From positions 62,001 through 126,000 of the forward strand of contig WBVU01000005.1 of NCBI GenBank assembly GCA_009192285.1: a stretch of 64,000 bases of DNA, in the 5' to 3' direction. The position numbers were made by a program, and so were the translations under genes. Each line of letters starts with the position of its first letter. Position 1 is the stretch's first letter. The stretch comes from Morchella semilibera (taxonomy: Eukaryota; Ascomycota; Pezizomycetes; Pezizales; Morchellaceae). Positions 5,057 through 63,452 of the stretch are shown here, one piece after another. A model generated the notes under the pieces. That model had not been told where the DNA came from, did not search any database, and saw nothing but the letters and a program-made list of their open reading frames with translations.

Positions 5057-5349
5057 GCCGGCAGCGGCGTTCCTTTCCCGCTAAGATAGAATAGAGGGCG
5101 GGGCGGGGCGATGCGGGGGTGGGAAAGAGTGGGGGTGGGAAAGAGGGGTGTTGTTGTTGTTGTGGACTGCGGGGCTAGAATTCGGGAATATGTTTGGTCC
5201 TCAAAAGCCTCGGACCAGCGAACCAATCAGGATCTAGCAGATATGTAGGTACACATCTTACGTGACTAAGTACCAACGCGTATTTTCTTTAATCGCAATA
5301 TTGACTCACTCGGCGTGGACCAGGTTCGCCGGTGCATTAATCTGTCTAG

Positions 5350-10408: not shown

Positions 10409-11043
10409 GGCGTTGTATTGAATTGAACTTTGCGATCTAGGTACTGAGGTGATGATATTTGGTGTGTTGTCGATGCCGCATTACATAACCGTGCGAGGCT
10501 GAAGGTTCAGCGCAAGATCCATACCTGATATGGGGCCTAGATCCGTCAACATTGAATATCGACCAAGGAAGACTCCGCTCTTGGCGATTTCTCCCTGACC
10601 CAATATAGCATAAACCAAAGCTGGCGGGGGGGTTGCTGTACATACGGCTTTATAAATTTAATTACGTATGGAAAGACACTCACCGTCTCTATCTTGTATA
10701 AGGAATAATTTCCCGCATGGCGAAGATGCCGACATTCAATCCGGAGGGCAATGACAGCGGATAAAGCCAATCGATAGGTGCCTGTGCCTGCATAATAAAA
10801 GTGCGCGGTTGCGGGATCCCTAACCCTGTCGGGGTTAGACTGTTGCTAGCAAGGATCGTCCTCTCACTCCCTCTTAAGCTACATGCCTTTCTGCTCTACA
10901 GCTCCCACCCTGCGATCTATCCTCAGCTTCCCCACCACCTTCCGCTCCCCAGTGCGGCAAAGTAGGCGCGACCAAGGCAAGGCGATTGGCACCGAGCGAT
11001 GGTGCTACACTCACAGAACGCCAACATCAGGCTTGGTGATGTA
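10409..11043. other. gene-free stretch upstream of the HeLo-like gene
   Basis: This is the promoter side of the gene ending at 10408. No motif can be assigned with confidence. A single CCCTAACCCTG lies at about 10809-10819. The small open frames here have no family pattern. Confidence 0.5.
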
Positions 11044-13817: not shown

Positions 13818-14300
13818 TCTAACGGGGTGGGGTCGGGTTCAGGTACGAGGCGGAATAGACTTCAGGGACAGAGACAGGACAGGGTCGGCTCAGGATATAC
13901 ACAAGGCAAGACAGGTTCGGGTTCGGGTTCAGGTTCGGGTTCAGGGATGAGGTGGAGACAGGAGGGCCGAAGCCAAAGTAATATATTGCTAACAGAAAGA
14001 AGACGTTGCCTAGAGAGGCGGAAACATAGGAAAGAACACATTCTATATATACAACTATCCCCCCGCACCGATGACTCATCCCATAGAATCCCATAGAAAC
14101 TCCTACATTCTCGTATCACCCATACTATTCCCAATAGCTCCAGTTCTATCCCGTTACTCCAAACCTCCTAGCGCTACATTCTAATTCCCGAGGCTCCTTC
14201 CAATCCTTCCATCCTACCCGACATCCACCGATACTGATCCCAACCCGTTCGAAGAGCAGGCTTGGCGCGGGGCGAGATGCAGGAGGCGGAAGCCGTGATA
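13818..14300 (-). repeat. 3' LTR of the Gypsy fossil
   Basis: It matches 19420-20465 at both ends, including ctaacggggtggggtcgggt and gatgcaggaggcgga. It contains tandem ttcggg/ttcagg hexamers. It is shorter than its partner. The termini read TATCAC...GTTAGA in element orientation, not the common TG...CA. Confidence 0.85.
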
Positions 14301-17297
14301 TGTTGCCCTCCTCATTGGTTTCAGGCTCCCCGGTACGAGAGAAACTCCGTCAGGTCTCGGTCTTGGGTGGATAGCTGTATGAAATCGGATCAACAAGCGG
14401 GAAACTTGGTAAGATCTCAGCGTAACCTCCCCAGGTTTGGTGCCGTCGTAGCCCTTCCACTTAACTAAATACTGCAGACGGGAGTAGCGAAGGCGAGAAT
14501 CTAGAAGTTCATCAACTTCCCATTCTTCATCACCCTCGACAATCACCGGAGGTGCCGGAGGAGGAACGTGTCCTGGGAGAGGATCTGTAGCACAGGGCTT
14601 GAGCTTCGAAACATGAAAAACAGAATATATCTTTATCGTAGAGGGCAGATCAAGTTCGTAAGCGTAAGGACTAATAACCGACTTAATCTTAAATCGACCG
14701 ATACGTCTCCAATCGAGCCTTCGGGAGGGCCTAGTAGTCTGAATATTTTTGGCATTAAGCCATACCTCATCGCCCACCCTATACATAGGAGCAGGAACTC
14801 GGCGGGTATTAGCATTAGTCTCCTGTCGATCCTGGGCGTAGCGTATCTCGGCTGGCAGCTGATCGTGGATTTCGGCCATCTTCTGAACAAGGGCATTCGT
14901 ATCCTGAGGAAGGCTCGTGAGCGGAGACAATGTTAGGTTCTCCGTAAATCGTGGATCAAAACCATAGTTAGCCATAAAAGGAGAGACCTGAGTCGTTTCC
15001 GAAGCATGATTATTAGAGGCAAACTCGGCGAGCGGTAACCAATCCACCCAGTCATCCTGTTGATAGGACACATAGCTCCTCAAATACTGCTCCATTACCG
15101 CATTAATTCGTTCTGTCTGGCCATCGGTTTCGGGGTGGAAGGCAGAGGATAAGGCCACATTAACCTTCAGTGCCTTGCAGAGAGATTTCCAAAATTGAGA
15201 TGTAAACTGAGTACCTCGATCGGAGACAATACTAGTTGGAAGACCATGGAGTTTCCAAACGTGATCAATAAACAATCGTGCAAGATCTTCGGAACCAGTT
15301 GTAATATTGCAGGCAATATAGTGTCTCATTTTCGATAGACGATCAACTACCACGAGAATCGCATCTCTCCCTTTACTTTCCGGTAATCCCGTAACGAAAT
15401 CCATAGAAATATGTGTCCAAGGTCTCTGGGTGATCGGAAGAGGACGAAGCACTCCATAAGGGGCGTGGCGAGCCGTCTTACTACGACTGCAGGTATGACA
15501 ATTCCTAATATAGCGGTCCACTGTATTGCGCATCCCTGGCCAATTGTAGGAGCGGGCGAGAAGCTGAAAGGTTTTAGCTTTCCCGGGATGGCCTGCAGAG
15601 GGAGCATCATGGTGTTCTTTCAACAGGTGCAATTGCAACGGCGCATCGTTTAGAACAAAAAGTTTCCCGCGATAGGTTAGGAGACCTTTCCTGGTTGAAC
15701 ATTCCGCTAGAGTAATTTCTCGGGAGTGTCTAACGCCATCTCGGAGGAGTCCTAAGATTTTATTTGGGTATGGGTCAGTGACATAAGCCTGTTCAAAAAG
15801 TTTTTCTAGGGGTGACTGTCCTCGGACAGCCGGAATGGCTGCCAACAAACCCAAATTATGGGACTTCAACACTGTCTGACTTTGCTGCGTCAGGCGTTCA
15901 TCCCCCTCTTTAGGCAGATCTCCTGATCTCCTAGTCAATGCATCTGGTTTTCCCCCTTGCTTTCCTGGCCGATATTTAATCACATAATTAAACCGCGACA
16001 GGAATTCTGACCAGCGTGCCTGTCGGCGATTCAAGTCTCTCTTGGTCATAAAATACTCCAAATTCCGATGATCGCTCAGGACTTCAATAGGTTCGGCTAC
16101 ACCCATAAGTTCAGCTCTCCATTCTTCGAAACACTTAATGATTGCCAGCAGCTCTTTATCATAAATCTCGTAGTTGCATTCGGCAGGCGAATGAGTTCCG
16201 GAGAAGAAGGCAACAGGATGAAGAATATTCTCATCGCTGTACTGAGAAAGAGTACCACCGGAGACATAATCGGAAGCATCTGATTCCACGATAGCTTTAC
16301 AATCGAAATCAAAATGACGAAGAATCGGGGCCGTAGTAAACGCAGTTTTTAGTCCTTCAAACGCCGCTTCACAATCCGAAGACCATATAAATGGCACACT
16401 CCCTTTAGTAAGCGTCGTAAGAGGCCGAACAATACCAGAATAATTTTTAATAAAGCGCCGATAAAAATTTGCCCAGCCGTTAAAAACCTGTATATCCCGA
16501 ACATTTAGAGGACGAGCCCACTTAATAATGGTCTCAATCTTCTTGGGGTCGAGCTTCAAGCCTTCGGTAGTAACAATCATACCCAGGTACTTCACTTCCT
16601 TAACCTGGAACTCGCACTTCTCAGGGGAGCAGTAAAGATCGGCATCGGTAAGGGCTTGCAGAACTTGATTAACATGATCGCGGTGAGATTCCAGATCCTC
16701 ACTATAAATAAGGATATCGGCCAGGTAGGCAGTACAAAAGCGATCCAGGAAGGGGCGAAGAGTATCGTTAATAAGATGCTGGAAAACGGCGGGAGCATTG
16801 GTCAATCCGAAGGGCATCACCCTATACTGGAAATGGCCCACTCTGGTACGGAACGCGGTTTTCCACTCATCTCCAGCTGCCACCCGGACCAGGTTATAGG
16901 CATTTTTCAGATCCAACTTGGTGTACCATTTAGCCTTGCAGAGTTGATTAAACGTTTCCTTGGGCAGCGGCAGGGGATAGCGATTCTTAACAGTAATCGC
17001 ATTCAGGCTTCGATAATCCACGCAAAACCGAAGTCCGCCACCAGGCTTCTTCACGAACAACACGGGAGATCCGGCGGGGGAGGAGCTAGACTCAATAAAA
17101 CCCTTCTTTAGCATATCATCGATGTATTCGATCAATGCAGCCAGTTCATCTCGAGACATGCTATATAAAGGACCGAAGGGGGGTTCCTTTCCCTCATGAA
17201 GATTAATCCGGATATCATAGGGACGATGAGGGGGCAGCTTCTGGGGGCCTTCTTTTCCAAACCGTTGCCAGAAGTGGTGATGTTCGGGGGGAACCAA
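14214..17297 (-). CDS. Gypsy Pol: RT, RNase H, integrase, chromodomain
   Basis: A long open region whose tail runs into the LTR. Recognisable parts in order: the reverse transcriptase entry motif (GFIESSSSPAGSPVLFVKK), the RT palm (FCVDYRSLN), the catalytic YLADILIYS region in place of the usual Y-x-DD, RNase H (DASDYVSGGTLSQY), the integrase zinc-binding segment (H-H-C-C), the integrase core (MDFVTGLPES, DRGTQFTS, FHPETDGQTER) and a C-terminal chromodomain (YLVKWKGYD). It serves copying and insertion of the element; the chromodomain is known to steer integration to heterochromatin. Part of the fossil. Confidence 0.9.
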   Translation of the reverse strand: MVPPEHHHFWQRFGKEGPQKLPPHRPYDIRINLHEGKEPPFGPLYSMSRDELAALIEYIDDMLKKGFIESSSSPAGSPVLFVKKPGGGLRFCVDYRSLNAITVKNRYPLPLPKETFNQLCKAKWYTKLDLKNAYNLVRVAAGDEWKTAFRTRVGHFQYRVMPFGLTNAPAVFQHLINDTLRPFLDRFCTAYLADILIYSEDLESHRDHVNQVLQALTDADLYCSPEKCEFQVKEVKYLGMIVTTEGLKLDPKKIETIIKWARPLNVRDIQVFNGWANFYRRFIKNYSGIVRPLTTLTKGSVPFIWSSDCEAAFEGLKTAFTTAPILRHFDFDCKAIVESDASDYVSGGTLSQYSDENILHPVAFFSGTHSPAECNYEIYDKELLAIIKCFEEWRAELMGVAEPIEVLSDHRNLEYFMTKRDLNRRQARWSEFLSRFNYVIKYRPGKQGGKPDALTRRSGDLPKEGDERLTQQSQTVLKSHNLGLLAAIPAVRGQSPLEKLFEQAYVTDPYPNKILGLLRDGVRHSREITLAECSTRKGLLTYRGKLFVLNDAPLQLHLLKEHHDAPSAGHPGKAKTFQLLARSYNWPGMRNTVDRYIRNCHTCSRSKTARHAPYGVLRPLPITQRPWTHISMDFVTGLPESKGRDAILVVVDRLSKMRHYIACNITTGSEDLARLFIDHVWKLHGLPTSIVSDRGTQFTSQFWKSLCKALKVNVALSSAFHPETDGQTERINAVMEQYLRSYVSYQQDDWVDWLPLAEFASNNHASETTQVSPFMANYGFDPRFTENLTLSPLTSLPQDTNALVQKMAEIHDQLPAEIRYAQDRQETNANTRRVPAPMYRVGDEVWLNAKNIQTTRPSRRLDWRRIGRFKIKSVISPYAYELDLPSTIKIYSVFHVSKLKPCATDPLPGHVPPPAPPVIVEGDEEWEVDELLDSRLRYSRLQYLVKWKGYDGTKPGEVTLRSYQVSRLLIRFHTAIHPRPRPDGVSLVPGSLKPMRRATYHGFRLLHLAPRQACSSNGLGSVSVDVG

Positions 17298-17456
17298 GGT
17301 AGCAATTTCCGGGGGTATCGACTCCGTAGAACCACCAAGGAACAGGGCATAGACAGTCGATCCCTGAGTGGTCTCGGCAAAGGTAACAGCACTGACGATC
17401 TCAAAGTCGTGATGAGCAGGAAGCGGTGAGGTAATTCCCTTAACATAAACAGAAAC

Positions 17457-17900
17457 TTAATCGTCATTGCAACGTTGAAGACAGCGAGGGGACCCAAAGG
17501 TTAACGAATTATCGGCAAAATTAATAGCAACATTATGTCGGCGCAGCCAGGGAATTCCTAGCACCAACGGATAATGTCCTAAGCGGGTAACATAGGCGGA
17601 GATTTTTTCCATATGACCTTGAATACGAAGCGAGAAATGAGCAATGTGGGTAATGCTACCAGAGGAGATTTCTCTTCCATCGATAACATGAAGGGCGCGA
17701 GGATTAGGTAGAGCAGTAGTGGGGATTTCCTTGTGGCGTACAAATAATTCATCAATGAATGCAAATCCAGAAGCCCCGGTGTCAACAAGTGAGTAGGTCT
17801 TAACAGTTTTATTTTGATCGGATACGATACATGAAACAACAAGGTGATCATTATCCGAAACCTTCTCACCAGGGACACCAGAAGCAGCAGAAGCAGACAA
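17457..17900 (-). CDS. Gypsy protease region
   Basis: Retropepsin-like segment with the active-site pattern [12 protein letters not shown] and the later [12 protein letters not shown] flap/beta pattern typical of Gypsy aspartic proteases. It lies between gag and pol of the same fossil. Confidence 0.85.
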
Positions 17901-17929
17901 AGAAAGAGGAGGGACCAGGCCTAAGCCAC

Positions 17930-19414
17930 CTAAGACAGGTCCTCGTGAAAACCCGACTGATCCGGGGCAGTCACCGACATCGAACCAGGAGAACCCAAAC
18001 CCAAAGATCCAGAGCCAGAAGAAGAAGAAGCACCAAAAGGAAACCCAAAAACATAACCAGGAGAAGAAACAGGACGAGAGGCTTGATTAACAACAGGAGG
18101 CGCGCCGGCCCCAGACATAACAGGAGGTGCACCGACCTCAGAAGTAGCAGCAATACGAGCGGGACGAGCAACAGGACGAGCAGGACATTCAGCAGCAAAA
18201 TGCCCAGGACCTCCACAATACATGCAGAGTCCTTGGGCGGCACGTCAGGCACGCTCGGCAGGAGTAATAGGGCCCCGGCGTTGGGGGCGGCGGACACCAG
18301 ACAGATCCATTGGCACCGCACCACCGGGAGAGTAAGAGGGGTGAGAAGCGGGAGCAGCAGAACTAGGAGCGGAAACAGGAACGCGAGCAGGGATAGAGGG
18401 AGCAAAAGATTGACGGGCGGCAAAGGGAGAGGGGCGATCCCTAGCACGAGCATCCCGGAGCCTATTGTCCAATTTTTGGAGTAACAGAACATATTCAGAG
18501 GTGGCGGCAGGGACATCGTGATGGATCATAGCGGAACGGAGCTCGCGGGAGAGGCCTTGAGTGAGTGCGTGTTTTTTAGCCTCATCGTTCCATCTGACCT
18601 CAGCAGCCAAGCGTTGAAACTCGGCGAAATAGGTAGAGAAGTCCCGGCCGCCTTGGGTAAGACGTTCGAGTTCTCGTTCAGCAGTGGCAATACGGTCTGG
18701 GTCTCCAAAGGCGGTTTCCAGAATGGTAATCAAGGCTTCAATATCTTCCAAGTCAATGCGTCCTCCAACAACGAGGGGCATTACCTGGGCAAGGGCACGA
18801 CCAGAGAGAAGATTAATAGCGTAGGCAAGGCGGGCTTGGGCAGCGGGAAAACGATCATGGTTGGCGAGCATCTTGAGGCGAAGTTGAGTAACAAAGGGGC
18901 GAAGCTCCTCCCTCTTCCCATCAAACTTAGGTGGGTCGGGGACCTTCTCGGAACGAGGGGTGGCAGGAGCCGCAGGGGGAACCGCAGGAGGGGCGACGGG
19001 AGGAGCAGCAAGCGGAGCCACCGATGGAGGAACCGCTGGAGGAGGAGGAGTCTCAAAGTGGACTTGACGAACGGGGGGAGCCATTGGGGGAACGGGTTGT
19101 GCCGTAAGCAAGGCATTCAACTGGCGGGTCTCTGCCAGCTGTCGTTCCAGGTCAGCCACCTGTTGTTCGAGTTCAGGAATAGCAGCGGTTTGATTCTCCG
19201 CAGCTTGGCAGGCGGCTGTCATATGGGCTAGATCGGTTCGAGCTTGATTTCTTTCCTCCAGGACTCGGTCCCGGATTTGTGAGATCGCGGTCAGATTGCG
19301 ATGTAGTGCAATAGGGTCAACATTAAACTGTCGCTGAAACTCAGTAAGAGCAGCGGGGAACACCCAGGCTTCTTGGGCGGACATAATGTATATCGGGAGC
19401 CGAAGGCGAGGCAA
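17930..19414 (-). CDS. Gypsy Gag region
   Basis: The likely initiator is MSAQEAW near 19384. A coiled-coil N-terminal part (about residues 25-85) is followed by a Pro/Ala-rich linker. A retrotransposon Gag core follows ([20 protein letters not shown], then [12 protein letters not shown]). Downstream, a zinc-knuckle-like [12 protein letters not shown] occurs in the gag-to-protease stretch. These are the marks of Ty3/Gypsy Gag (structural, nucleic-acid binding). Part of the fossil. Confidence 0.82.
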
Positions 19415-19419
19415 CGTAG

Positions 19420-20465
19420 TCTAACGGGGTGGGGTCGGGTTCAGGGACGAGGCGGAATAGACTTCAGGGACAGAGACAGGACAGGGTCGGCTCAGGATAT
19501 ACCCAAGGCAAGACAGGTTCGGGTTCGGGTTCAGGTTCGGGTTCAGGTATCACGGCGTACCACGGGCTTCGCGGAGGAGGAGGATATCGGAGTATAGGTC
19601 TTCGGGTGTAAGGGTTTCTTTTGGGTCTTGGAGTTTCTATGGGTTTCCGTTATACGGTGTGATGAGTCATGATTGTACAGGGATTAGGAGGGGTATATAT
19701 ATGTTGCTACGGATCTTCCCTTTGTTCTTTTCTTTCTCTTTTCTTTCCTTACGTGTTCTTCCTGTTATCAATCTACGGTTAGTTTCGTCTCGTCTCTTTC
19801 TTTAGTTCTGAAAATATTCGATCATACCATAGTCTCGCCAAGACGCCTCTTGGGTCTTCCTAAGTACGTCGTCTCGTCTTAGTTTCTGCTCGTCTCAGTT
19901 CGCTTTGCCTCACTCATAGTCATGACCGTAGTACGTATCGTCTACTGGTATCTTCGTCTCCACGTTTTCGTCAGAGAGGCATCTGGAACCCTCTGCCCAC
20001 CATCGCTTCTCGTTGTTCCCTCGTCCTTGTATTCGTCCTCGGTCTCTGTCTCTGCTCGGTTGTGTACTCGGCCCTATTGTCTGTTGTCTTTCGGTGTTGC
20101 TCCGTACATCAGGGAATGAGGTGGAAACAGGAGGGCCGAAGCCAAAGTATTATTGCTAACAGAAAGAAGACGTTAGCCCTTAGAGAGGCAAAACATAGGA
20201 AAGAACACATTCTATATTACCAACTATCCCCCCGCACCGATGACTTATCCCATGAATCCATAGGAAACTCCTAATTCTGTTCACATACTATTCCCAATAG
20301 CTCCAGTTTATCTCCGTTACTTCCAATCCCTCCTAGCGCTTACTTCTATTCCCGAGATCCTTCCTAATCCTCCATCCTACTTCCGACATCCACCGATACT
20401 ATCCAACAACCCTGTTCCGAAGACGCCTTGGCGGGGGGCGAGATGCAGGAGGCGGAGCCGTGATA
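19420..20465 (-). repeat. 5' LTR of the Gypsy fossil
   Basis: It pairs with 13818-14300. It is about 1,046 bp, with the same outer ends and the ttcggg/ttcagg hexamer block near 19515-19545. A TATA-like stretch (ggtatatatatg) near 19692 could belong to its promoter on either strand. The primer-binding site just inside the LTR is not obvious. Confidence 0.85.
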
Positions 20466-33103: not shown

Positions 33104-36100
33104 TCAATCAAAACGAGCATGGTCACCGACTTCCTCGCCAAAATCAATGATATCTAGCTCACAAGATCTCGCACCATCAAGTGACCTTCTCCAATCCCTT
33201 CCCCAGCCTTCCCCAATGAACCTCCCCCCAGCGCTTCTTATCCCTAAAAGAACACTTAAAAGGATTTTACTCTCTGTAAGCATAATTGAATCAAAAGGGG
33301 GCGACGGTGTCCCATAGATCGACAACTCAGAGAACCCAGCGGCGCGATCCAGGCCAGAATACCGCTGAGCGTGGAAAATAGATTGCCTGAAGCCAGTAGA
33401 CAGAAGATTAAAGAAGCTCCATGTATGAAGTGTGCAGTTGCCGTACACACCATTCCAGGGCCAGTAATCATTATTGAAGTTGGGGCAACCACTTTTGGAA
33501 ACTTGCACCATGACGTATCCTGGGCTGAGGAGAGATATCAACCTCAGTGGTCTTTTATATATCTTGTTATCAATCCCACTTTCCAATAAAAGCTGAAACA
33601 CGTCACTTTGTCCATGCTCAGCCGCGAAGTACAGTGCGTTGCGATTCTGGTCGTCCCGGGCCTGTACGTCCACACCGCCGCGAAGGAGAAGTTTAATAGC
33701 GGCTACGTATCCTTGGCTAGACGCCAAATGGAGGGCTTTGCAACTCATATCCTGGACCTTTACGTCCAGTCCCTCGCCTCCGTGCCTAACCTGGCCCTGT
33801 ACGTTTTCACTACAGGCAAGGAGAAGTCGAACAATCGCCTCGTGTCCATTTAGAGCCGCCAAATAGAGTCCGTTGCGACCATTCTTATCACAAGCCAGTA
33901 GGTCCACATTTTTGGCAAGAAGGAGTCGAACAACGGGCTCGTGCCCGTGTTCGGCCGCGAAATGGAGCGCGTTGCCACCGTTCTCATCCTGGGCCCGTAG
34001 GTCCGCACGGCTGGCAAGGAAAAGCTGAACAATGGCCTCCTGCCCTTCTATCGCCGCATGGTGCAACGCAGTCCTCCCCCGAATGTCTTTAGCTCCCGGG
34101 TCAGCGCCGGAGTCAAGGAGAAACCTAGTAGCAGCGTAATGCCCGCCTTTCGCAGCCAAGTGTAGAAGGGTTTCTTTTCTGGTATTGTGGGTATTGATGC
34201 TGCCAGAAGCAGCCGCTAGATTGCGGATGGCGGTAAGGTACCCTCCCCCTGTAGAGGCAAGTATTAAGCTATCTAGGCGATCTTGCACATCGACTCCGGA
34301 TCCCTGGGATCTGAGGGTGGGCAATAGCAGGCAATTCAACAGTACGGTCGAGAGCGAGTTATGCGATTCCTTAACACTAGAGAGGAGATGCGACAGCCTG
34401 TCTGTTATCTCCGGTGCCAACCTATCCATGTTCTCTTTCAAGTATTCCAACGAAAATCTAATGAACGGCCTCTTTTCTAGGTACTCGACCAATCTGTCTG
34501 CCCAGAAGCTTGACTGCCCCACTCCCTGAGGGATTTTGTATTTTACCCCTTCCTTTTGCACAACCTCAAGGAAGCGGACACAAGTTAGCTGTATCATGTT
34601 TCGAGCATCCTGGGGGTCGGTGACATCGAGATGAGATCGTCTTATGAGGTCACGAGCGTGGAGGAAAAACTCTCGAACTGTTTGGTGCATAACCTGAACA
34701 ACTGGAGACACTTTCGTACCTGTAAGGGCTTAATGTATTTCACTGGGAAACCGCTCAGGACCGGGTAACCACCCAAGTACATGGTTTGGGCCGAGTTTCA
34801 AGAGAGCTGTCGAGGCCAGCAACAAACACTCAAAATGCCGCGACTAAAGGGCAAGAGATTGGAGGAACGGGAAAGATTGATTCAGCAAGCTATTATCCAC
34901 TATAAACAGTCAGCTAAACCTGCTTTGCGAGTTTCTGCAGAAACCTTTGGTATTTCTTGGTCTACTCTTAGGGATAGACTTAATGGGGCAACAAATAGGC
35001 GAGAGGCTCATCGTTCACAGCAACTACTTACGGAATATGAAGAAATTGCTATTGTGAAATGGTGTGAGCGTATGGATGACTGGGGGTTCCCTTTGAGGCT
35101 CTCCCTTGTTAAGGAAATGGCTACATATTTGGTCAAAAAGCGAGATTTTGCCAGAACACTCGGCAAACATTGGTTACAGAGATTTTTGAGCCGCAATCCT
35201 CAAATATCATCCAAATTCAGTTCTAGATTGGATAGACAGCGAGCGGTTACAGACAATCCGATTCTTTTAAAAGACTATTTTAAAAAGGTATTAGCAGATT
35301 CTATTTATCTTGATAGCTATTTACTCACTAGTGCTAGTTAAAGGATGTCATCGCACTATATGAGATTCTCCCAAAGAATACCTATAATATGGACGAGAAG
35401 GGGTTTATGATGGGCATGGCAGCAAAAGTAAAAGTCATATGCAGAATTGGTCGAAGAAATCCCCGCCTTACCCAATCAGGAAATCGCACCTGGGTAACTG
35501 TAATCGAGGCCATTTCTGCATCTGGCATTGCTATTCCTCCTATGGTAATCAATCAGGGTACAGCACACTATAAAGGCTGGTATGCAGGCGTGGAAAGTCA
35601 GGATGTGGCAACATTTGCCTATTCTGTAAAGGGTTGGACCGATTCGAAATTAGGATTGAATTGGTTGTCAGACAATTTTAATAAATATACAGCTCGAGTG
35701 TATGTCAATCAAATAACATTTTATCAAACTTGATCGCTAATTTAAACTAGGGCTGGTGGCCGGTGGAGGCTCCTAATTTTGGATGGCCATGTCTCACATG
35801 TGACATGGGAGTTTTTTGACTATTGCCTCAACAATAAGATAGTACCGTTCTGTCTACCCCCACACTCTACACATTTATTGCAACCTCTTGATGTTGGCCT
35901 CTTCTCTCCCTTACAAAAACATTACAGCAATGTACTGGATGAAAGTATGGAGCACTGTGGCGGAGATACAGGAATTAATAAAGGTACTTTCCTCCAATAC
36001 CTGTTTGAGGCAAGAAGACGGGCCTACACCACCCATAACATTCTTTCCGCATGGGCAAAAGCTGGTGTTGTCCCCTACAATCCACGCCGAGTCCTGAACC

Positions 36101-39100
36101 CTGTCGCGTCACCTACCAAAAAGAAGAGATTTTCTGTCTCAGCGTCCACAACCCCACGCACCACCCGCATGGCTAGGTCTACAACCAAAGAAGCTCTTGC
36201 TTTAGTCAAGGGCGGGTCCACTAGTGCTCAAAAATTAAGAGATCTCATACATCAGTTGGATAAAGGATTACAAATCTCTTTGACTGAGAAGGATATAGCA
36301 GATCATATTAATAAGCAATTCCGGAAATCTATTGCAAAGAAGGCAAAGACAGCCACTAATGATAGGAAGCAGCTTAGTAAAGCTAGAGTAATCACTACAG
36401 AGGATGTAGTGCGCCTGAGAGAGCAAAGAGAGATAGCAGACAAAAGGAAGATTGATTTAGCATTGGCTAGAGACATGAAAAGGAAATTGAAGAATGAGTC
36501 AGATATAAAAAAGAAGAAGAAAGAAGTCCGGATTTCCGAAAACAGAACTGTATATACTATAGATAACACTGAAGATGGTCAGGAAGAAGATTATAGGCCT
36601 GAGGTGGTTGAAGAAAAGCAAGAAGGGGATTGGTATAGTATTGAAGAATTTCATAGTACACCCCCTATAGTAGCTAGTAGAAGGTCAAGTAGACTTAAAA
36701 AGTAACTTATAAGTATATAGAATTATTATTTAATTATCTCTGATTAAATAAAGCTTATATTTAGGGTCACTTGTTGAGAAATTCCCTGAGTGCGCGCGCC
36801 GCACAGGAAATGATTTTTTGGGCGGTTACCCGGTTCCGGGCGGCTTCACGGTCAGATACGTTATAAGTCTGGGGATTCTAATATATGGGAGAAATTATGG
36901 TACAGTCCTTCTTAGCCTTTGGGGAAGCCTGTGCGATGTTGTGTTACCAGAGACACAGAAGTCAACCCTAGAGACCTCAGGGTAGTCATGCGTCCACCAA
37001 GGAACAAGCTCCCCCAAAGATCCAAAGGGATTGTAGCTACGTTGATATTTTTATACGTACCCTCTTTAACATCTATAAAGCCTCCAATGCAGTGGGTTAA
37101 CATCTTGCGGATGTCCCCTGGTATCTCCGACTCCCAGTATTTGAAATCTAGTTCGTCGTCTTCAATTGAACCCGGGATTGCAAGAGCGTGCTCCAGATCA
37201 ACGAGCTCTATTGCACATTCAGAGAACAAACAAAATTGAAGGATCCGTTTACCGTCCATCCCATCCTGTGGGTTGTTATTGTCTAGTGCTTGAAGCATAC
37301 ACTCATAGAGGCTCTCAAGGCTCTTGGGAAGTGATTTCAAAAACTTGAGTAACGTGCTTTTCCGTGAGCCATTCATCGCAAACCCTGCTAACTCTTTTAA
37401 CACCAGCGAAACCCATAGAAAAACACCATCAGCACACTGTATGACATATTTCTCTATCTCCTCTTTTACATCAACCTTAACTGAGTCGAAATCTTCGTTT
37501 TGTAGGATGCTATGTGCATAGCATTCTATATCGCCACGATTCATGTCTTGTAGCTGGAGTTTCCATCGCCCTGGCCATTTGACGGGTTGGAGCTCGTTAA
37601 TGGGTCGGCTAGCGAGAAAAACGTTGTATAAGCATCCAGTACCATCACCAGCAGCTGGTAGAGACAATTCGTATAGGAACCGAACAATGTCAAGACGATC
37701 CGTACATTCTGACTCATCCATAGCATCAATGATCAGATACACCGTTCGGAGTCGGGGATGGGTCTTGCAGGCGCGCAAGACATCTTTCATATTCTCGGAA
37801 GACCATTCGATTCTACCTGCCCCATTACGACGGTAGATAGACTGAAAGTGTATGAATAGTGACTCGTCAGCCTCCAGCATTTGAAACAAGAGTGCTTTCA
37901 ACATGCTTCGATGATTTCTCTCTGATTCACCATCCCGCGAGTTGTAGAAAAAGCTCGCAACGATAGTCCCTCTCGGAGGATCGAAAAAGTCCGCAAAGTA
38001 CCGTACCAAAGTACTCTTGCCACTCCCCGGTTTTCCTTCTATAAACAGAATACCCGAGTCTGGATAGCTCAGAGAAATCCAGGATTTGTATTCACAAGAT
38101 TCCCAAAGCCATGAAAGCGTATTCCCGTCGCGTAGCCCGATCTTATCATACCGTGAGTTTTTGAAATTGAGAGTATGAAGGCATTCTATAGCAGCATGAG
38201 CCATTCCAGGTTAGACGAAATCAAAGAAGACAAAGGCACAGTGTTTATACCCACCTTGTCTTTCCTGATCATAGGAAACCAGAACCCCCGAAGGCAGTAG
38301 AGGCAGACCGTTCTGCGTATCCGGTGGATGCATAATAAGTAATTTAACAGTGGAAAATCCTGGGCGTAGGTGTTGCATAACCCGACGAAGTTGCAACATT
38401 ATCATTTGCCATTGCTCAACGGGGAGCTGATCAAGGTCAACTATGAACTTTAAGCTTTGTTTTACATGTTGTTGGTTTGGTCCAGGACACATGTACAAAT
38501 CCGCAGCTGCCACAAAGACTTGCTCAAAAGCAGCCCAAATGCTCTCTGGTTCTGAAAGAGTGATGATGTTATCAAACGCAGTCTTGATGTTGTTTTGGAC
38601 TTTCATCATCTCATCGTCACCAATGGTTGTTAAGAGGGCCTGCAGGAACTCCTTTAAAAGGCATTGCTTTTGATCCTCCGGAAGTGTTTCAATGGTCTGA
38701 TGGATGAATGTCCATACCATGCCCGCAATCTTCCTTTTGACGTCACCATGGACGGGTCTGATCATACCACGTCCTATCGAGCTGAAGGAGAAATGCAGCA
38801 ACAAGCAAGTCTCTCCTGTGCTCCGTAAAGTTCGAAGAAGATGGAGAGCTAGGTATGGCAAAGATGGGAACCGTGTATAGACCAAAGTTTGGACCTCGTC
38901 AGTTGTTGAAATCCACTTTTGGTAGTCTAGGTTGTGTAGCAACAAAAAGAAATCTGCTCTTTCCTTAAGGTCAGAGGGCTCCTTAGATTTGTTATAATAA
39001 TCCTGCTGGTCGATATAAAAGGTAGTTTGCCCCGGTAACACTGTCTGGACAAGGGTCTTGATTGCTGTCGCTCGGTCGTATTGCACTGTCACGCCGTCAG

Positions 39101-40107
39101 CGTTTTTGCCTTATCGTAGTTCGCCTACTAAACACGGACTATCCTCACCGATACAAGTAGCCATGCAGGTTACAACATCCTGAAACGCCTTGTCATCAGA
39201 TGACTTGAATTTCACCATGTCGGTGTGATTTGACTGGATAGGAAATCGTAGCTCGTTGGGTAGAAAGAGTTGAGATGACGATCTCTGCACAATCTGGACC
39301 TTCTCGCCTGATCTACTAAACACAGTAGGTGCCACCTATGCAGTTTAGCCAGGGAAACGCTGAAGGGCAGGGAAGAGTTGAATCACCATCTTTACCGCAT
39401 TTGTCATCTCAGTTTCGTAAAAGCTGAACACCTTTGCCTTGAATCCGTTCCACATCCTGCTCAAAGAGTCCTTCTGATTCTCCAAGAATTCGGAGTCTTC
39501 CGCTAGCTGTGACAGTAGGGTCTGGGTTTTATCGCTCCATACCCCTTTACCCACCATTTCTCTAAGCTCTTTGATTCTCAGACCGTTATGGGGTGTTCCG
39601 AAGAAGAATATTCCATGGACGCAATTGAGCATAGACCCAGGCTCTAGATCTAGTGCCCATTTGAGTAGTAACTGCATGGAAGAAAGAGCCCGGTCAGCGT
39701 TTGGTATCAAAGGGCACGGGGTCTCTCCTACCTGTACTACCAAAACACCTCCCATACTATGTCCAATGAATATAATGGGTCTTTCCTGAGGATATAAGAC
39801 AAGTGTTAAGACCCCGGCAGACTAGGAAAGGATCACAAGAGCTCTCATCTGATCATTTAACGAGACATACCGGACAATCTCGTCTAGCATTCATTATGCA
39901 CTGCTCGAGATCTAGTCTATGATCTCTTATGGTACAACCGTTTGGCTTGGAAAGACTACTGTCATAACCATATGTCATGATGCGTGTTTGTGGAAATTTC
40001 TCAGGCAGAGAGTCACGTAGCCACATTGGACGACCGAGAGGGCGATCGCCCACCCGACCTCTCCAGGAACCGAAGGCATGGCCACTGAGACCGGTGATTG
40101 CGATCAC
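33104..40107 (-). CDS. NLR-type protein: hydrolase, degenerate NTPase, NACHT, ankyrins
   Basis: Spliced exons with matching phase: 40107-39871, 39785-39732, 39671-39396, 39335-39149, 39085-38255, 38185-37061 and 34719-33104. The introns are 85, 60 (optional), 60, 63, 69 and 2341 nt. The visible part is 1441 aa. Residues 1-250 form a SesB-like alpha/beta hydrolase: ITGLSGHAFGSWR, nucleophile elbow GHSMGG (87-92), FFFGTPHNGL, FYETE, NHTDMVKF. Residues about 295-510 resemble a NACHT with no P-loop (YQKWIS, LLHFSFSS, FIVDLDQL at Walker B). Residues 530-905 form a canonical NACHT with P-loop GKPGSGKST (580-588), Walker B LIIDAMDE (680-687) and FLASRP. Residues from 905 on start VVQVMHQTVREFFL and carry about six ankyrin repeats, then a non-repeat tail. 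Fungal NLRs sense non-self and trigger cell death (family knowledge); the role here is inferred. The first codon seen is GTG, preceded by an AG acceptor, so a 5' exon is missing, probably within 40120-40600. A pogo-type transposon fills the large intron. Confidence 0.85.
34721..36875 (+). mobile_element. pogo/Fot1-like DNA transposon inside NLR intron
   Basis: About 2.15 kb. Inverted ends share accgggtaacc and flanking similarity: left about 34724-34776 (aaaccgctcaggaccgggta, then accacccaa), right about 36819-36873 (ttgggcggttacccggttcc, then gggcggcttcac). Matching positions continue outward to taatgtat / ttataacgtat, so each TIR is about 45-50 bp and imperfect. The target duplication is unclear; pogo elements use TA. 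It lies in opposite orientation to the host gene. Confidence 0.8.
34835..36705 (+). pseudogene. pogo-type transposase (HTH-CENPB, DDE_1), broken
   Basis: Starts at ATG 34835 (MPRLKGKRLEERERLIQQAI) with a CENP-B-like helix-turn-helix (ALRVSAETFGISWSTLRDRL) and a second DNA-binding helix set (FPLRLSLVKEMATYL, then GKHWLQRFLSRNP). The DDE core follows in later frames: NMDEKGFMMG (first D), LILDGHVSHVTWEFF (second D), LLQPLDVGLFSPLQ (third D). The tail is basic and coiled (36180-36560), with an acidic end and RRSSRLKK. Breaks: a frameshift near 35340 (frame resumes at KDVIALYEILPKNTYN), then TGA near 35733 and TAA near 35745 inside one frame before RLLILDGH. The copy cannot make a full transposase without outside help. 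Confidence 0.88.
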
Positions 40108-42134
40108 ACTATGGATAATTCAGTTATCAGGAATAAGTTGCGCCCGGGAATTTAGGATTATACCCACTCCGCACATATCTGATGTTGTGGGTGGTTCATG
40201 GGTGTTAGACCATAGAAATGTTTATCGATTCTTAGTCGGACTTCTCTGTCTCATTCATTTGCCGGGAAGACGTGATATTTTTCTTGATGGGGACCGATAT
40301 TCAGGTACTCCGTGCACGATTCGACGGTTAGCAGGGCCATTTGAGAGGTGTCACAGCAAGCTGGGGATAGGGCGGAAAGTTGGGAACTGTTGGGATCAAG
40401 TTCCGGATCGATATCCTGCAACGCTGTCCCCAGGTCACCCCCGCTCCAGCAGGAGGGTATTCCACATATCCGGAAGCAGATCGGTCCATGCGGTGAGGGG
40501 TCGGGGGCAATCGTACTTGGGACCCCGGGGTCTCTTGATCGGACTGATGCCGATGCGGTATTTGCTGGCGGCGAACTTGCCATTAAGGCGGCAGGTAATG
40601 ATACGAAGAATATCTCGGGAGTGTCGCCAAAATATCAAAATATTTCCTCAGCTCACAAAGCTCCGGGAGGCTAATTCTGACGATGATAGAACTCTGCTCG
40701 CTTAGTTATCATCGGCGGATAGATAAACCCTGCTTCCTATGTGGCACTCGCGTATAGGCATAAGGATGCAATATTTCTCCATGCGTATCTTTAAGTCTTG
40801 CGGTGTAAAATATTATATCACATCCTACGTGCATGTCTTGGAAGTCTTGGAAATAATTCTTCGTTGAATGCATATTTTGACTAGACAACGCCCAAATACT
40901 TTATCACGATCGTACAGAACCTCTCTACCATACCTAAGTATTTTACTTGATGGAGGGTATCTGCACACCCATATTTACGTTGAAATTACCCGGTGTGGAA
41001 ACTGTCATCCAGCAACCCATACAATCAGTACATACCTGCACTATTCCGGGAGCCCAGCTACGGAGCCGTACCATTATCCCTTCAAACCCTGTATCACCTG
41101 GTATACCATACCTGATCTGTTACTTTTATATTTCGCTTCGATAAATACTTCGCTTATTCGTTACTCAACTAGCCTAACTGGATCCGTGGATACACCTACG
41201 CCTCTGCCTCGGTTGTGTACCTTGACTCGGCACGTCTGTGCCCTTCGACCCCGTAAGAATTGAGACGCCACCAAGTCAAATCCAAGGACATGGACAGGAG
41301 AGACAGAGTCATCAAATCAAGACTCCCGAACATGTCATATGCAACGAATACCTACGTTACATAGGGAAGAAAGAAAGCGTAAATTGCGAATGCGGCCACG
41401 GCAAACAAACAGTTAAACACACTTTGATCCCCCCAGAAGAAATTACTATCGAATACCTCCTATGGAAAGACAAAGGCATTCAAACAGCCCTAAAGATCTG
41501 GAGGAAATTTTTGAAGGCGCGTCACAAAGAGAATGAGAAAACGGACGAAGAAAAGCAGGAGGAGAGAGAACTAGGAAGGGGGCGGAGAGTATTAGAACGG
41601 GAAGGACGAAAGCAGCTGAAGAGGGGGGGAGGGAGCAAGGAAGGGAAGTTGAGCGAAATGGAAAATTGTAACAACTTGTAATTTAAATGTTATTTCTTAT
41701 GTATTTTTTATGTTGTTATTTTCTATGTTTTGAGGGGTAGGCATGGAAAGGGTGAGCTTTGGTCATAGTCTTCCAGCTATATAACGTGTAAACTATGATT
41801 AAATAAATAAATGGATAGATAACTCGACATTGTCATAGCCTAAGGGCTCGGTGCAATTAATGATGTAAACAAGAAAGAAAGAAAACAAGCCTGCTCCGAA
41901 TTTTTGCGAGTGATATTACATGATGCAGCACCGAAAACGCAAATTTCAAAGTGATCCTTTAGACATGTCTGCTGTGAGATTTCAGAACTTTTGAGTATCG
42001 ATAAATCCAGTCTAGTATCTACTATGCCTACCAATTTTTGACGGGCTCGGGACAGGCTCGGACAGAAATTGAAAATGTCTCGAGCCAGACCTATGAGCCG
42101 GCTCGTCTCGTGGGGAACACTACTGTCGTATTCC
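40108..42134. other. NLR 5' flank, MITE fragment and LINE remnant
   Basis: 40108-40600 should hold the missing first exon of the NLR gene on the minus strand; I could not place it. About 40755-40862 is an inverted fragment of the GAGTCTTTTAGCCA MITE (aaaatattatatcacatcct, then catgtcttggaagtcttgg). A LINE fragment follows (listed separately). 41882-42134 has no recognisable content. Confidence 0.55.
41290..41880 (+). mobile_element. Tad/I-like LINE 3' fragment
   Basis: It encodes the end of LINE ORF2: ICNEYLRYIGKKESVNCECG, then a histidine, matching RTGHIKCNAYMHRIG and the CECG motif of the copy at 13283, then LLWKDKGI and a basic coiled tail ending ENCNNL (stop at 41681). The frame shifts just before ICNEYL. 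The 3' end has agcctaagggct, then aattaatgatgtaaac and an A-rich (GAAA)n tail at about 41868-41880. No clear target duplication was found. Confidence 0.8.
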
Positions 42135-55489: not shown

Positions 55490-56427
55490 TCAAGCAGCCA
55501 CTCTGAACCTAGCCGAAAATTCCAACTCGAGCCTCTCTTTTGCACATGGCCCTTCGCTAATCTCTCTTATCATATCCATCCCCGGTGGAAAATCATGCTC
55601 GAATACTGGCTCTCCGGCACCCCTCAGGTTCGCAAGCACAGACTGCCGAAAGTGCCACCGCAAAAGCCTATCAGACACTCTATGAGGATCCGCCGGATCT
55701 CGACACACAGGGTCTATATGCCGTCCATCTACGCCTAGAATATCTATAGTACCAAACACCACAATCTTGTAATTGTCCTATAATCAGTCAGCACTGAGGA
55801 TATCGACCCTAGAACTCTGGAACTATGACTCACATCCGGATTCACCGAAACAAGATACTTATCAAATGCCTGGTGCACGTCCGCTTTGAGCAGAAGCCCA
55901 TTTTGACAGGAGTTGATTTTTGACAGCCCCGTAGTATCGTCCATATCCGTGATGCATCCGCTATAACCCCACTCGATCCACAGATTTTCCTTCTCCAGTG
56001 GAAAAATATGTGCAGCTTCGAACAATGTCCAATCGAATGGAGCCATCCTGTTCACCACACCCGTGATAACACACTTTCCGTCACGAGCCCGGATTCCTTC
56101 ACGGAACTCTTTGTCTCGACCCGATACATTAAACGACATAATGCGTTGCACCCACGGCTCGTCACTGACACTAATCGTACCATCACAATAAACATCGTAT
56201 ATCCCAAGCTGCAGAGGATTGTCGCTCACCGATACCGTCTCGCCCGAGGCTCTATGTTGAACACGTATAGGCTGAGTCCCAGTAATAATAAGAATGATCC
56301 CTAGCATATGGAGGAAATTTGATTCTGTAACCGAGCCATTCTGAATGAGACCACCGAGAGCAGCATCACCAGGATTGGTAGCGTCGTAGAAGTGTACGTT
56401 GCGAAAGTGTGACCGATTTGACGCCAT
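55490..56427 (-). CDS. HNH-endonuclease-domain protein, one intron
   Basis: Exon 1 is 56427-55834 and exon 2 is 55777-55490. The 56-nt intron (GTGAGT to TATAG, CTGAC branch) is in phase 0, giving 293 aa. Residues about 105-185 form the HNH domain: FREGIRARDGKCVITG, then EAAHIFPLEKENLW (the H of AAHI), then INSCQNGLLL and VHQAFDKYLVSVNPD. The second exon carries the conserved tail of this fungal family: YKIVVFGTIDILGVDGRHI, then LLRWHFRQSVLANLRGAGE, then FEHDFPPGMDMI. The front (residues 1-100) is a mixed beta region. Such genes are common and expanded in Pezizomycetes and Agaricomycetes; their substrate is unknown. HNH folds cut DNA in other families, so a nuclease role is likely but unproven. 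All key family blocks are present, so this copy looks intact. Confidence 0.9.
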
Positions 56428-56689
56428 GAATGAATAGAGGACTAGAAAGGAAGGTTACCAGAGGGTGGGCAACACCCCTCTAAATACCTGTGGCTCCTCC
56501 ATCGATCCCAACCTTCCCGATTAGGTAACCTTCCTCATTAGGCAACCCGGGAACGTTCCCAGTTCTCACGTTTACTCTAGTGGTATGGAAAATTTCGCGT
56601 TACACTCCGCAAAATTCAAGCAGCCGGAGCGATGGTCCAGCGTTCCCAGCGCGGGGGCCGGAGGGGGAATCATATATAGATACTCTACA

Positions 56690-61335: not shown

Positions 61336-62387
61336 CGCGCGCGCAAAAAGACCACTTTCCAGTAGAAGATCAAGCGGTCCAGTAGGTGTTGTATATCATA
61401 ATAGATCTGCGGACTCCTACATTTCGTATGGTGTTTCTATTGTGCTAGATATGTACACTACCGGTCCTGGTTATGATTCATGATGTATGTGGGCTGGGCG
61501 CCGTCTCCTCCCTGGTTTTCGCTGGTACGAATGAGCCTTGGCGCCAAGTCGTTTAGGCTGGTTAAGAGATGGTAGTAAGTAGGTCCACGCTTGTAGCGCT
61601 GAAGAACGGAGGGTGGCCAAGATGGCAGCCTCAACTTGGAAATCTCCTAGCTCATGGAACAATGTCGAGTGATATACCATGGCCGAGTGATAATATATGA
61701 CCATATCGTGGTGAACAGGTGCTACAATAACTTGACACATCGCTCGCCCCGTCCGGGATTAGGTGGGACGCGGCAAGCGTTACCAAGCCCCGACAGCTTT
61801 CAAAGCCAGCATAACTCACCCTAGCTAACTGGAAGATATCCTAGTCACCCACTATATGCATGTAGCGAGGAAAAAAGACGGCTCAATCCGGGAGTGGCAA
61901 ACGCTCGGCTTAATGTACTGGGACAGACTACGATAGATGGTGTGTCGGACTGTATATCTGTGTGTATGAAATCATGGAGCATCACTCGACGCCAAGAACT
62001 CTCCTTTCCGAGGTTATGCAGGTACGGGGCACGCACCGATGCCAAGCCACCAAGCACCTAATCCCGCAATGACGAACGGGGCCGGGCTGAGCAGGGTGAA
62101 TAGAGTCTTTTATCCACGGGCGTTCGAGCGTTGCAATGAGAAATCGAGGTAGAAGAGCTAGGGCCCTGGCACATACATGCAGCTTGCATGAGAACTTGGT
62201 CTAAATAAGTAATATCTCAATATCAGGCGGGGTGAGTTGGGAAGTATAGGTTGGGGTTGAGAAGCGGAGGTAGAGAAAGATCAACACCACAATCATTTCA
62301 ACCTCAACCCCATCCAACCTTAACCGTGCTCTCGCTATTGAGGATTTCCGATCTAGAACTATACCTTTCTTCCTATAATCACATACA

Positions 62388-63452
62388 ATGAGTAGAAATA
62401 TTCTTGAAGAGGTTCCTGTCCAGCATCGGGAGATACTACAAAGGTCCAGACCCGAGTTGATGTTCCTCTATCTGACAGAAACTCTTTTCTTCTGTCAAGC
62501 TCCTAGAAAGTGTCGCATCGATTTCTCTACTTTGACCGACCATGAATTTGTCCACTTTACCCGATTCAGCTCATACGACATTGTCTCAATATCTACTCTA
62601 CTTCGGCTACCCAAAAAGTTCACTATTCCTGCTGGTTCCCCTTTTACCGGTCAAGAAGCCCTCTTCCTACTTTGCGCTCGTCTTGCTTGGCCAACCCGTT
62701 TGGAAACCATGCAATACATGTTTGGATATCATTATACCGCAATATCTCAATGTGTAAACTGGATTTTACAGTTTATTTTACAACATTGGGACTTCCTTTT
62801 GACAAACTTCGATTCAGGCCATTTGTCACCCAACCGTCTACAACACTTTGCACAAAAAATCAGAGAGAAGGGTGCTCCTCTAGATAAATGTTGGGGATTT
62901 ATCGACTGTACTATACGGAAAATATGCCGACCATCTAAATGGCAGCGTGACTGTTATAATGGCTATAAACATATGCACGCTCTTAAATATTCAGCTGTCA
63001 AGTGTCCAGATGGTCTCATTTATCATTTATATGGTCCATTGGAGGGAAAAAGAAACGACAATTCGCTTTTATATGAGAGTGGGCTTCTGGATCGCTGCTA
63101 TAAGCATGCAAATAGTTATTACATGTTTGGTGACCCCGCATACCCTCTCTCGACGGTCCTACTATCTCCTTTTAGTCATTTGGTACGTGATTCGACCGAA
63201 GATGAAAAATGGTTCAACAAAAGTATGAGTGCATGTAGAGAAGCGGTAGAATGGGGATTTGCAGATGTGTTAAGACTGTGGACATCATTAGACTTTTCTT
63301 CAACTCAACGTCTATTTAATTCTCCTGTTGCAACTCAGTATCGCGTTGCAGTACTGCTTACAAATATTCATATTTGTCTTTACGGCTCAGAAACTACTTT
63401 ATATTTTGATTGCGCTCCACCGTTACTGAAGGACTATTTAAAATGTACTTAA
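62388..63452 (+). CDS. PIF/Harbinger-type transposase (DDE_Tnp_4)
   Basis: Intact ORF of 354 aa with ATG in context acaatga. An N-terminal helical domain (residues 1-130) includes a helix-turn-helix-like segment (TGQEALFLLCARLAWPTR). The DDE_Tnp_4 core has all three acidic residues in family context: FIDCTIRKICRP (D173), YYMFGDPAYP (D249) and CREAVEWGF (E288). It is further marked by CYNGYKHMHALKYSAV, PDGLIYHLYGP and LLTNIHICLYG near the end. It cuts and inserts its own element, usually with the help of a second Myb/SANT-like protein, here probably the convergent ORF downstream. No stop or frameshift is seen, so this copy may be active or recent. Its inverted ends and TWA duplication could not be located; the right end is outside the window. 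Confidence 0.92.
   Translation: MSRNILEEVPVQHREILQRSRPELMFLYLTETLFFCQAPRKCRIDFSTLTDHEFVHFTRFSSYDIVSISTLLRLPKKFTIPAGSPFTGQEALFLLCARLAWPTRLETMQYMFGYHYTAISQCVNWILQFILQHWDFLLTNFDSGHLSPNRLQHFAQKIREKGAPLDKCWGFIDCTIRKICRPSKWQRDCYNGYKHMHALKYSAVKCPDGLIYHLYGPLEGKRNDNSLLYESGLLDRCYKHANSYYMFGDPAYPLSTVLLSPFSHLVRDSTEDEKWFNKSMSACREAVEWGFADVLRLWTSLDFSSTQRLFNSPVATQYRVAVLLTNIHICLYGSETTLYFDCAPPLLKDYLKCT

What the first reader, a model, noticed from the sequence alone, without database searches (positions are those of the whole stretch)
33104..40107. NLR-type gene with a degenerate NTPase placed before a canonical NACHT
The protein combines a SesB-like hydrolase (GHSMGG), a NACHT-like region without a P-loop (YQKWIS, HFSFSS, FIVDLDQL), a complete NACHT (GKPGSGKST, LIIDAMDE) and ankyrins. 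The two NTPase regions align in order (WIS, the FxFxS/FFYNS strand, Walker B, MHPP/SRP), which suggests an internal duplication followed by loss of nucleotide binding in the first copy. Such a pseudo-NTPase/NTPase pair would be an unusual layout, possibly autoregulatory.
Basis: partly seen in the sequence, partly recalled or inferred. Interest (0 to 1): 0.72.

Follow-up and report, generated by a model that had tools for sequence, protein, structure and literature searches.

The report
Fungal immune receptor with dead extra NTPase
A fungal immune-receptor-like gene carries, on its own exon between the predicted lipase and the working molecular switch, what looks like a second copy of the switch that can no longer bind ATP, a layout known from a few rice resistance proteins.

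Summary
On the minus strand the gene splices to SesB-like hydrolase, a 277-residue region without P-loop, a canonical NPHP3_N-type NACHT, and ankyrins; a modelled frame of 1452 residues runs from an ATG at 40199 to the stop at 33104. Pfam does not recognise the first region in the window protein and single-sequence folding failed for both domains. Profile-profile comparison links it to the NBD core of 11 other NACHTs of this genome: probability 91%, four decoy profiles 2.1% or less, above 60 of 60 column shuffles. It looks like a degenerate NBD without Walker A, second Walker-B acid and sensor arginine.

In the window it is one exon, 831 nt, phase 1-1. It was found in three genes (one NACHT clade, 100/100) and in none of 11 other NACHT loci examined. 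It evolves faster than the NACHT exon (dN/dS 0.46 against 0.18). It shows no special likeness to its partner NACHT, so internal duplication is unproven. All three genes carry a lesion. Closest layout found in print: rice BPH18/BPH26/Pib. New variant of a known kind; function untested.

The parts
40168..40487 (-). N-terminal exon (5' limit unknown), conserved in paralogs; in-frame TGA at 40253-40251; the ATG at 40199, downstream of the TGA, can start the rest
   Evidence: alignment with C1 and C17 copies and match in L030; no Pfam match for the C1 and C17 copies
39149..40108 (-). SesB-like alpha/beta hydrolase, exons 40108-39871, 39785-39732, 39671-39396, 39335-39149; GHSMGG 39764-39747
   Evidence: splice model in one frame; alpha/beta-hydrolase Pfam matches below cut-off
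38255..39085 (-). Exon 5, 831 nt, phase 1-1: degenerate NBD (psi-NBD); no P-loop; Walker-B-like strand FIVDLDQL keeps the first Asp only; MHPP in place of SRP
   Evidence: profile-profile to the NACHT NBD; three-gene alignment A1; phases
37061..38185 (-). Exon 6: canonical NPHP3_N-type NACHT with Walker A GKPGSGKST 38036-38010 and Walker B LIIDAMDE 37736-37713, plus the helical part that follows
   Evidence: Pfam E 1.2e-26
34720..37060 (-). Intron 6, 2341 nt; about 210 nt by arithmetic without the transposon
   Evidence: GTACGT..TACAG, phase 1
34731..36863 (+). Tc5/pogo-like DNA transposon inside intron 6, inverted ends 78% alike, TA flanks, transposase frame broken
33104..34719 (-). Exon 7: end of the NACHT module (MHQTVREF), linker and ankyrin repeats; stop codon 33106-33104; the part after the ankyrins could hold a further intron
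   Evidence: Pfam Ank_2 E 4.6e-40

Best explanation
The gene encodes a fungal NLR-type STAND protein: SesB-like lipase effector, psi-NBD, working NACHT switch, ankyrin sensor. The psi-NBD is the NBD core of a NACHT that came to lie on its own exon in the intron between effector and switch, once, in the ancestor of three genes of this genome, and then lost nucleotide binding. I think it most likely persists as a non-catalytic structural and regulatory module: it packs between the hydrolase and the active NACHT, holds the effector off at rest, and moves with the switch when the ankyrins sense their target. Shown here: layout, phases in the window gene, distant homology, one clade, open frame in two of three copies. 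Inferred: fold, loss of nucleotide binding (from motifs), the regulatory role. Separate estimates: degenerate NBD 0.85; retained for a function 0.6; this regulatory mechanism 0.35.
For: Profile of the three psi-NBDs against 11 NACHTs of other genes: global score 40.4, P 1.5e-7, probability 90.7, local 39.4; the best of 60 column shuffles reached 11.3 global and 21.0 local. It matches the NBD part (global probability 91.1, 226 columns); four decoys (winged-helix part, reversed NACHT profile, SesB, the clade's own winged-helix part) give 2.1 or less, local scores up to 24.1. A deeper profile of 84 pieces still exceeds 50 of 50 shuffles. Order of anchors: WIS, FxFxS strand, helix with Q, W, Walker-B strand, SRP position. 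Leaving the stretch out joins hydrolase to NACHT in phase 1 in all three genes. One clade at 100/100. No stop in 831 and 837 nt of the window and C17 copies, 8-17 in other frames. Window-C1 dN/dS 0.46 at dS 1.32.
Against: Pfam finds no NTPase in the window copy, and NPHP3_N at E 0.03 in only one of three members. AlphaFold2 from a single sequence gave pLDDT 38.2, and 46.4 for the NACHT control, so the fold is untested. With the deeper profile the probability falls to 28-30 although shuffles stay lower. Leaving out one member drops the best probability to 52, 43 or 41; the window sequence alone scores no better than shuffles (local 20.8). The reversed psi-NBD profile reaches local 23.4, above its shuffles. 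Constraint is weaker than on the NACHT; one copy has two frameshifts in just this exon; every copy has a lesion somewhere, so decay is a live rival. No transcripts.
Confidence: 0.5

Rival explanations
1. Decaying relic: an NBD exon gained long ago that no longer does anything and is being lost, perhaps by exon skipping, since skipping exon 5 leaves the frame open.
For: dN/dS 0.46 against 0.18 for the NACHT exon, pN/pS 0.67 (0.56-0.81) against 0.33 (0.27-0.40); two frameshifts in exon 5 of the C1 copy, read by eye; exon 5 is 831 nt, phase 1-1, and a model without it stays open for 1175 residues; all three genes carry a lesion somewhere.
Against: No stop over 831 and 837 nt in window and C17 copies that share 23% identity with saturated synonymous sites.
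Confidence: 0.3
2. Integrated decoy or sensor: the dead NBD is a bait for invader molecules that attack NACHT switches, or binds nucleic acid as proposed for bacterial inactive STAND modules (iSTAND).
For: The psi-NBD evolves fast between copies. Bacterial iSTAND modules with eroded NTP motifs are proposed as nucleic-acid receptors (PMC8195603, passages). Integrated decoys are discussed for fungal NLRs (PMC12258605, passages).
Against: No ligand known; fast evolution also fits relaxed constraint; a place between effector and switch is unusual for a sensor (general knowledge).
Confidence: 0.15
3. The first region is an unrelated domain or linker and the shared motifs are chance.
For: No Pfam match over cut-off and no significant PDB match; identity in the profile alignment is 11%; single members score weakly.
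Against: Three-member profile scores above all shuffles and decoys and collinear over the whole NBD.
Confidence: 0.13

Closest known systems
Rice BPH18, BPH26 and Pib (CC-NBS-NBS-LRR)
   Same: A first, partial NBD without most ARC parts and with a P-loop far from consensus stands before a complete one (PMC5041133, passages). A wheat Pm40 candidate is also called CC-NBS-NBS-LRR (PMC8508864, search listing only).
   Different: NB-ARC in plants, LRR sensor, coiled-coil N-terminus; in BPH18/BPH26 the first NBS still shows several motifs. Here NACHT, ankyrins, SesB-like hydrolase, and no readable P-loop. Likely convergent (inference).
Fungal sesB-like/NACHT/ANK NLRs
   Same: Effector, NACHT, ankyrin order; eight of 11 other NACHT loci examined had a SesB match upstream. 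sesB-like is among the most frequent N-terminal domains of fungal NLRs (PMC4986451, passages).
   Different: One NBD; here a second, degenerate NBD is inserted.
Bacterial iSTAND and iSTAND2 modules
   Same: STAND domains with eroded NTP-binding motifs in immune systems, iSTAND2 recognised by profile-profile comparison; in another bacterial system one of two partner STAND proteins is inactive and a hetero-multimer is predicted (PMC8195603, passages).
   Different: In the passages seen, dead and live domains are on separate proteins; here they are in one chain.

Membership tests
NACHT (NPHP3_N type), region 2 | Family profile match | tested here: met
   PF24883 E 1.2e-26, over its cut-off; PF05729 E 0.0028, below its cut-off
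NACHT (NPHP3_N type), region 2 | Walker A and NACHT-type Walker B | tested here: met
   GKPGSGKST and LIIDAMDE
NACHT, region 1 (psi-NBD) | Family profile match over cut-off | tested here: not met
   No match in the window copy; E 0.03 in one of three members
NACHT, region 1 (psi-NBD) | Walker A GxxxxGK[ST] | tested here: not met
   Absent in all three members
NACHT, region 1 (psi-NBD) | Homology to the NACHT NBD core by profile-profile comparison | tested here: met
   Probability 90.7-91.1 global, 54-63 local, above 60 of 60 shuffles; 28-30 with a deeper profile, above 50 of 50 shuffles
NACHT, region 1 (psi-NBD) | P-loop NTPase fold | tested here: inconclusive
   pLDDT 38.2, NACHT control 46.4
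Fungal SesB-like/NACHT/ANK NLR | SesB-like hydrolase N-terminal to NACHT | tested here: inconclusive
   GHSMGG and alpha/beta-hydrolase matches below cut-off; the name SesB comes from the finding and papers, no SesB profile was run
Fungal SesB-like/NACHT/ANK NLR | C-terminal ankyrin repeats | tested here: met
   PF12796 E 4.6e-40
Fungal SesB-like/NACHT/ANK NLR | Role in non-self recognition or cell death | not testable with these tools
   No phenotype data
Plant psiNBS-NBS (Pib/BPH18 type) | Partial NBD with degenerate P-loop before a full NBD | tested here: met
   Same anatomy by motifs and profile
Plant psiNBS-NBS (Pib/BPH18 type) | NB-ARC type NBDs with CC and LRR | tested here: not met
   NPHP3_N/NACHT and ankyrins: analogue, not member

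The most novel reading that the evidence does not exclude
A subclass of fungal NLRs evolved a paired dead and live NBD, gained by exon shuffling and kept as a regulatory partner domain, independently of the rice Pib/BPH18 type: a convergent solution in two kingdoms that implies a general use for a non-catalytic NBD between effector and switch.
Probability: 0.3. Interest if true: 0.68.

Novelty: new variant of a known kind. Interest (0 to 1): 0.5.

Why it matters
NLR switches are generally thought to act through one nucleotide-binding domain. A dead NBD placed before the live one in a fungal NLR, matching a rare rice layout, would point to a shared use for pseudo-NTPases in immune receptors. 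The symmetric exon makes the question directly testable, because it can be removed cleanly without breaking the frame.

Tried and rejected
Relatives from the genome were not handed to the predictor because its stated list does not name loci from whole-genome searches.

Relatives outside this genome: a scan of bacterial and archaeal genomes found 64 pattern matches and no relative; plasmids gave one match at E 4. No eukaryote collection was on hand, so the spread in other fungi is unknown.

Transposon insertion as a knock-out was considered and rejected: it lies in an intron that the C1 and C17 genes also have, about 255 nt and under 92 nt there.

Origin from the partner NACHT: tested with triples and single rows, not supported, not excluded.

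Rows dropped: the NACHT tree used 12 of 14 rows; L035 and L036 were left out as 250 residues or shorter, and also from the pool of random triples. The 11-row NACHT profile leaves out the three genes of the psi-NBD clade. Of the genome's NPHP3_N matches (142 at E 0.01, 150 of 206 candidates scored) I looked at the gene layout of only 11 loci besides the three.

Print search: of the six terms tandem, two, double, pseudo-, degenerate NACHT and NACHT-NACHT only NACHT-NACHT occurred, in 9 papers, none on fungi by title (listing); searches gave no such report either as far as their listings show.

Full report
Setting. The window lies in a 56.8 Mb genome of 23 contigs, at C21:62001-126000; a second contig, C22, carries the 10 kb that I compared at 100% identity. 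A search for NPHP3_N gave 142 matches at E 0.01 or better, with intron-split genes and twin contigs counted more than once and only 150 of 206 candidates scored, so the genome is rich in NLR-like genes. That it is an ascomycete fungus is my inference from gene structure and content; no call names it.

Observation. On the minus strand six predicted GT-AG introns join seven exons in one frame. A further exon upstream, conserved in two paralogs, ends with a donor at 40167 and joins in phase to the hydrolase exon. It has an in-frame TGA at 40253-40251 in the window copy; an ATG at 40199, after the TGA, opens a modelled frame of 1452 residues that ends at 33104. Pfam gives NPHP3_N E 1.2e-26 and Ank_2 E 4.6e-40; the hydrolase is matched only below cut-offs (Hydrolase_4 E 1.1e-4, PGAP1 6.6e-4), and region 1 of the window has no NTPase match.

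What region 1 is. Searching the whole genome with region 1 found three genes: the window gene (twice, twin contigs), one on C1 (42% over the best piece, 36% over 264 codons) and one on C17 (23%); only the best candidates are scored there, so more distant copies could be missed. I aligned the three and compared their profile with 11 NACHT domains of other genes of the genome. The global alignment covers 225 columns with score 40.4, P 1.5e-7 and probability 90.7; the best of 60 column shuffles scored 11.3. The local score is 39.4 (probability 54), best shuffle 21.0. Against the profile that also holds the clade's own NACHTs the reversed psi-NBD profile scored 23.4 local and 1.3 global. The NBD part of the NACHT profile alone gives 91.1 global and 62.8 local; its winged-helix part, the reversed NACHT profile, SesB and the clade's own winged-helix part give at most 2.1, with local scores up to 24.1. 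With a profile of 84 pieces of many more NLRs the scores fall (global 24.9, local 33.6, probability 28-30) but still exceed all of 50 shuffles (13.7 and 26.7). Leaving out one member at a time lowers the best probability to 52, 43 and 41; without the window copy the global probability is only 3.6. Single members score weakly: local 20.8 for the window, 35.1 for C1, 24.2 for C17. The positive control, the partner NBDs with P-loop masked, scored 175-177. So the link is real in my view, but distant. The aligned anchors are WIS before the core, the strand of FxFxS, the helix that carries Q, the W before Walker B, the Walker-B strand and the SRP position. Walker A is gone in all three; Walker B keeps its first Asp in all three (invariant column D217); the arginine of SRP is gone.

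Structure. AlphaFold2 without an alignment gave pLDDT 38.2 for region 1 and 46.4 for the NACHT, which is a clear NACHT by Pfam; the test is therefore inconclusive and not negative.

Gene anatomy and origin. In the window region 1 is exon 5, 831 nt, with phase 1 on both sides. In C1 and C17 leaving the stretch out also joins hydrolase to NACHT in phase 1, although C1 allows a phase-2 join too; the exact limits of the exon in those two genes were read by eye, and its start in C17 is not settled. In nine other genes the hydrolase and NACHT anchors lie 263-407 nt apart, against 1052-1084 in the three. Of those nine, five (L028, L029, L030, L032, L035) allow only phase-1 introns at the joint by a simple motif search, one is mixed (L037) and three gave no solution; with a looser donor pattern L029 also allowed phase 0. 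This fits a cassette that entered a phase-1 intron, without proving it. None of the 11 other NACHT loci whose layout I looked at shows region 1 by tblastn. The NACHT tree of 12 rows puts the three genes in one clade with support 100/100. Whether the cassette came from the partner NACHT is open: the psi-NBD profile against the clade's NACHTs has probability 0.7, 30 of 30 random triples of other NACHTs score higher than the partner triple, a test biased by their greater diversity, and single rows show no preference, L027 scoring highest.

Constraint. Window against C1: exon 5 dN/dS 0.46 with dS 1.32, exon 6 dN/dS 0.18 with dS 1.35; pN/pS 0.67 (0.56-0.81) against 0.33 (0.27-0.40). Against C17 synonymous sites are saturated. 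Exon 5 has no stop in 831 and 837 nt in window and C17, while other frames hold 8-17. The C1 copy has two frameshifts, both in this exon, read by eye from the three frames. C17 has a TGA in the linker before the ankyrins unless a small intron removes it, and the window has the TGA in the N-terminal exon. Assembly errors cannot be excluded for any of these. All three genes are therefore possibly broken, and decay of the family is a serious rival.

Transposon. The 2341-nt last intron holds a Tc5/pogo-like element (HTH_Tnp_Tc5 E 5.4e-9, DDE_1 E 3.1e-13) with inverted ends 78% alike and TA flanks; without it the intron would be about 210 nt by arithmetic. Among 18 matches in the genome only the window copy and its twin are full length. 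It does not interrupt coding sequence in this model.

How it may work. NLRs of this layout are thought to let the repeats sense, the NACHT switch and the N-terminal enzyme act; SesB-like domains are listed as lipase or esterase and counted as direct effectors (PMC4986451, passages). A dead NBD between enzyme and switch cannot drive nucleotide exchange itself. The plainest role is a structural and regulatory spacer that holds the enzyme off at rest and adds contacts in the oligomer. Other roles are decoy, or nucleic-acid sensor as proposed for bacterial inactive STAND modules (PMC8195603, passages), or none. All of this is inference.

Comparison. The best match that I found in print is in rice: in BPH18, BPH26 and Pib the first NBS is partial, lacks most ARC parts and has a P-loop far from consensus, and only four of 480 rice NBS-LRR genes have two NBS domains (PMC5041133, passages). 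A wheat Pm40 candidate is also named CC-NBS-NBS-LRR (PMC8508864, listing only). Noncanonical P-loops are known in fungal NLRs as single-residue variants (PMC4986451, passages). I found no report of a tandem dead and live NACHT in fungi (listings; PMC12258605 and PMC9815663, passages), in a library that lacks most subscription papers.

Verdict. Observation confirmed; interpretation partly supported; new variant of a known kind; interest 0.5.

Noticed in passing
window 34731-36863: Old Tc5/pogo-like DNA transposon with broken transposase frame, in the last intron of the NLR gene; full length only here and on the twin contig, diverged pieces elsewhere.
   Followed up: partly
window 40487-40168: Conserved N-terminal domain (FRIxGIP...LTPMN) upstream of the hydrolase in the three genes and in L030; no Pfam name for the C1 and C17 copies; window copy has an in-frame TGA.
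   Followed up: partly
L025 from about 5212: The C1 paralog has a long array of ankyrin repeats, many nearly identical by eye, in a 703-residue frame: looks recently amplified.
   Followed up: no
G000 C21 and C22; C12 and C13: Pairs of contigs carry the same NPHP3_N loci at nearly matching offsets: haplotypes or redundant assembly.
   Followed up: no
window 8298-10480 (-): Ankyrin protein frame next to a frame with a weak PigL_N-type N-terminal match, no NACHT match in either.
   Followed up: no
window 3398-5080 (-): Frame with a DUF7580 match just below cut-off, another possible effector-type gene.
   Followed up: no
window 14214-19420 (-): Frames that read like a Gypsy-type LTR retroelement (recognised by eye, no profile run).
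   Followed up: no
window 62379-63452 (+): DDE_Tnp_4 transposase frame.
   Followed up: no
window 55744-56454 (-): HNH_2 endonuclease with DUF7881.
   Followed up: no
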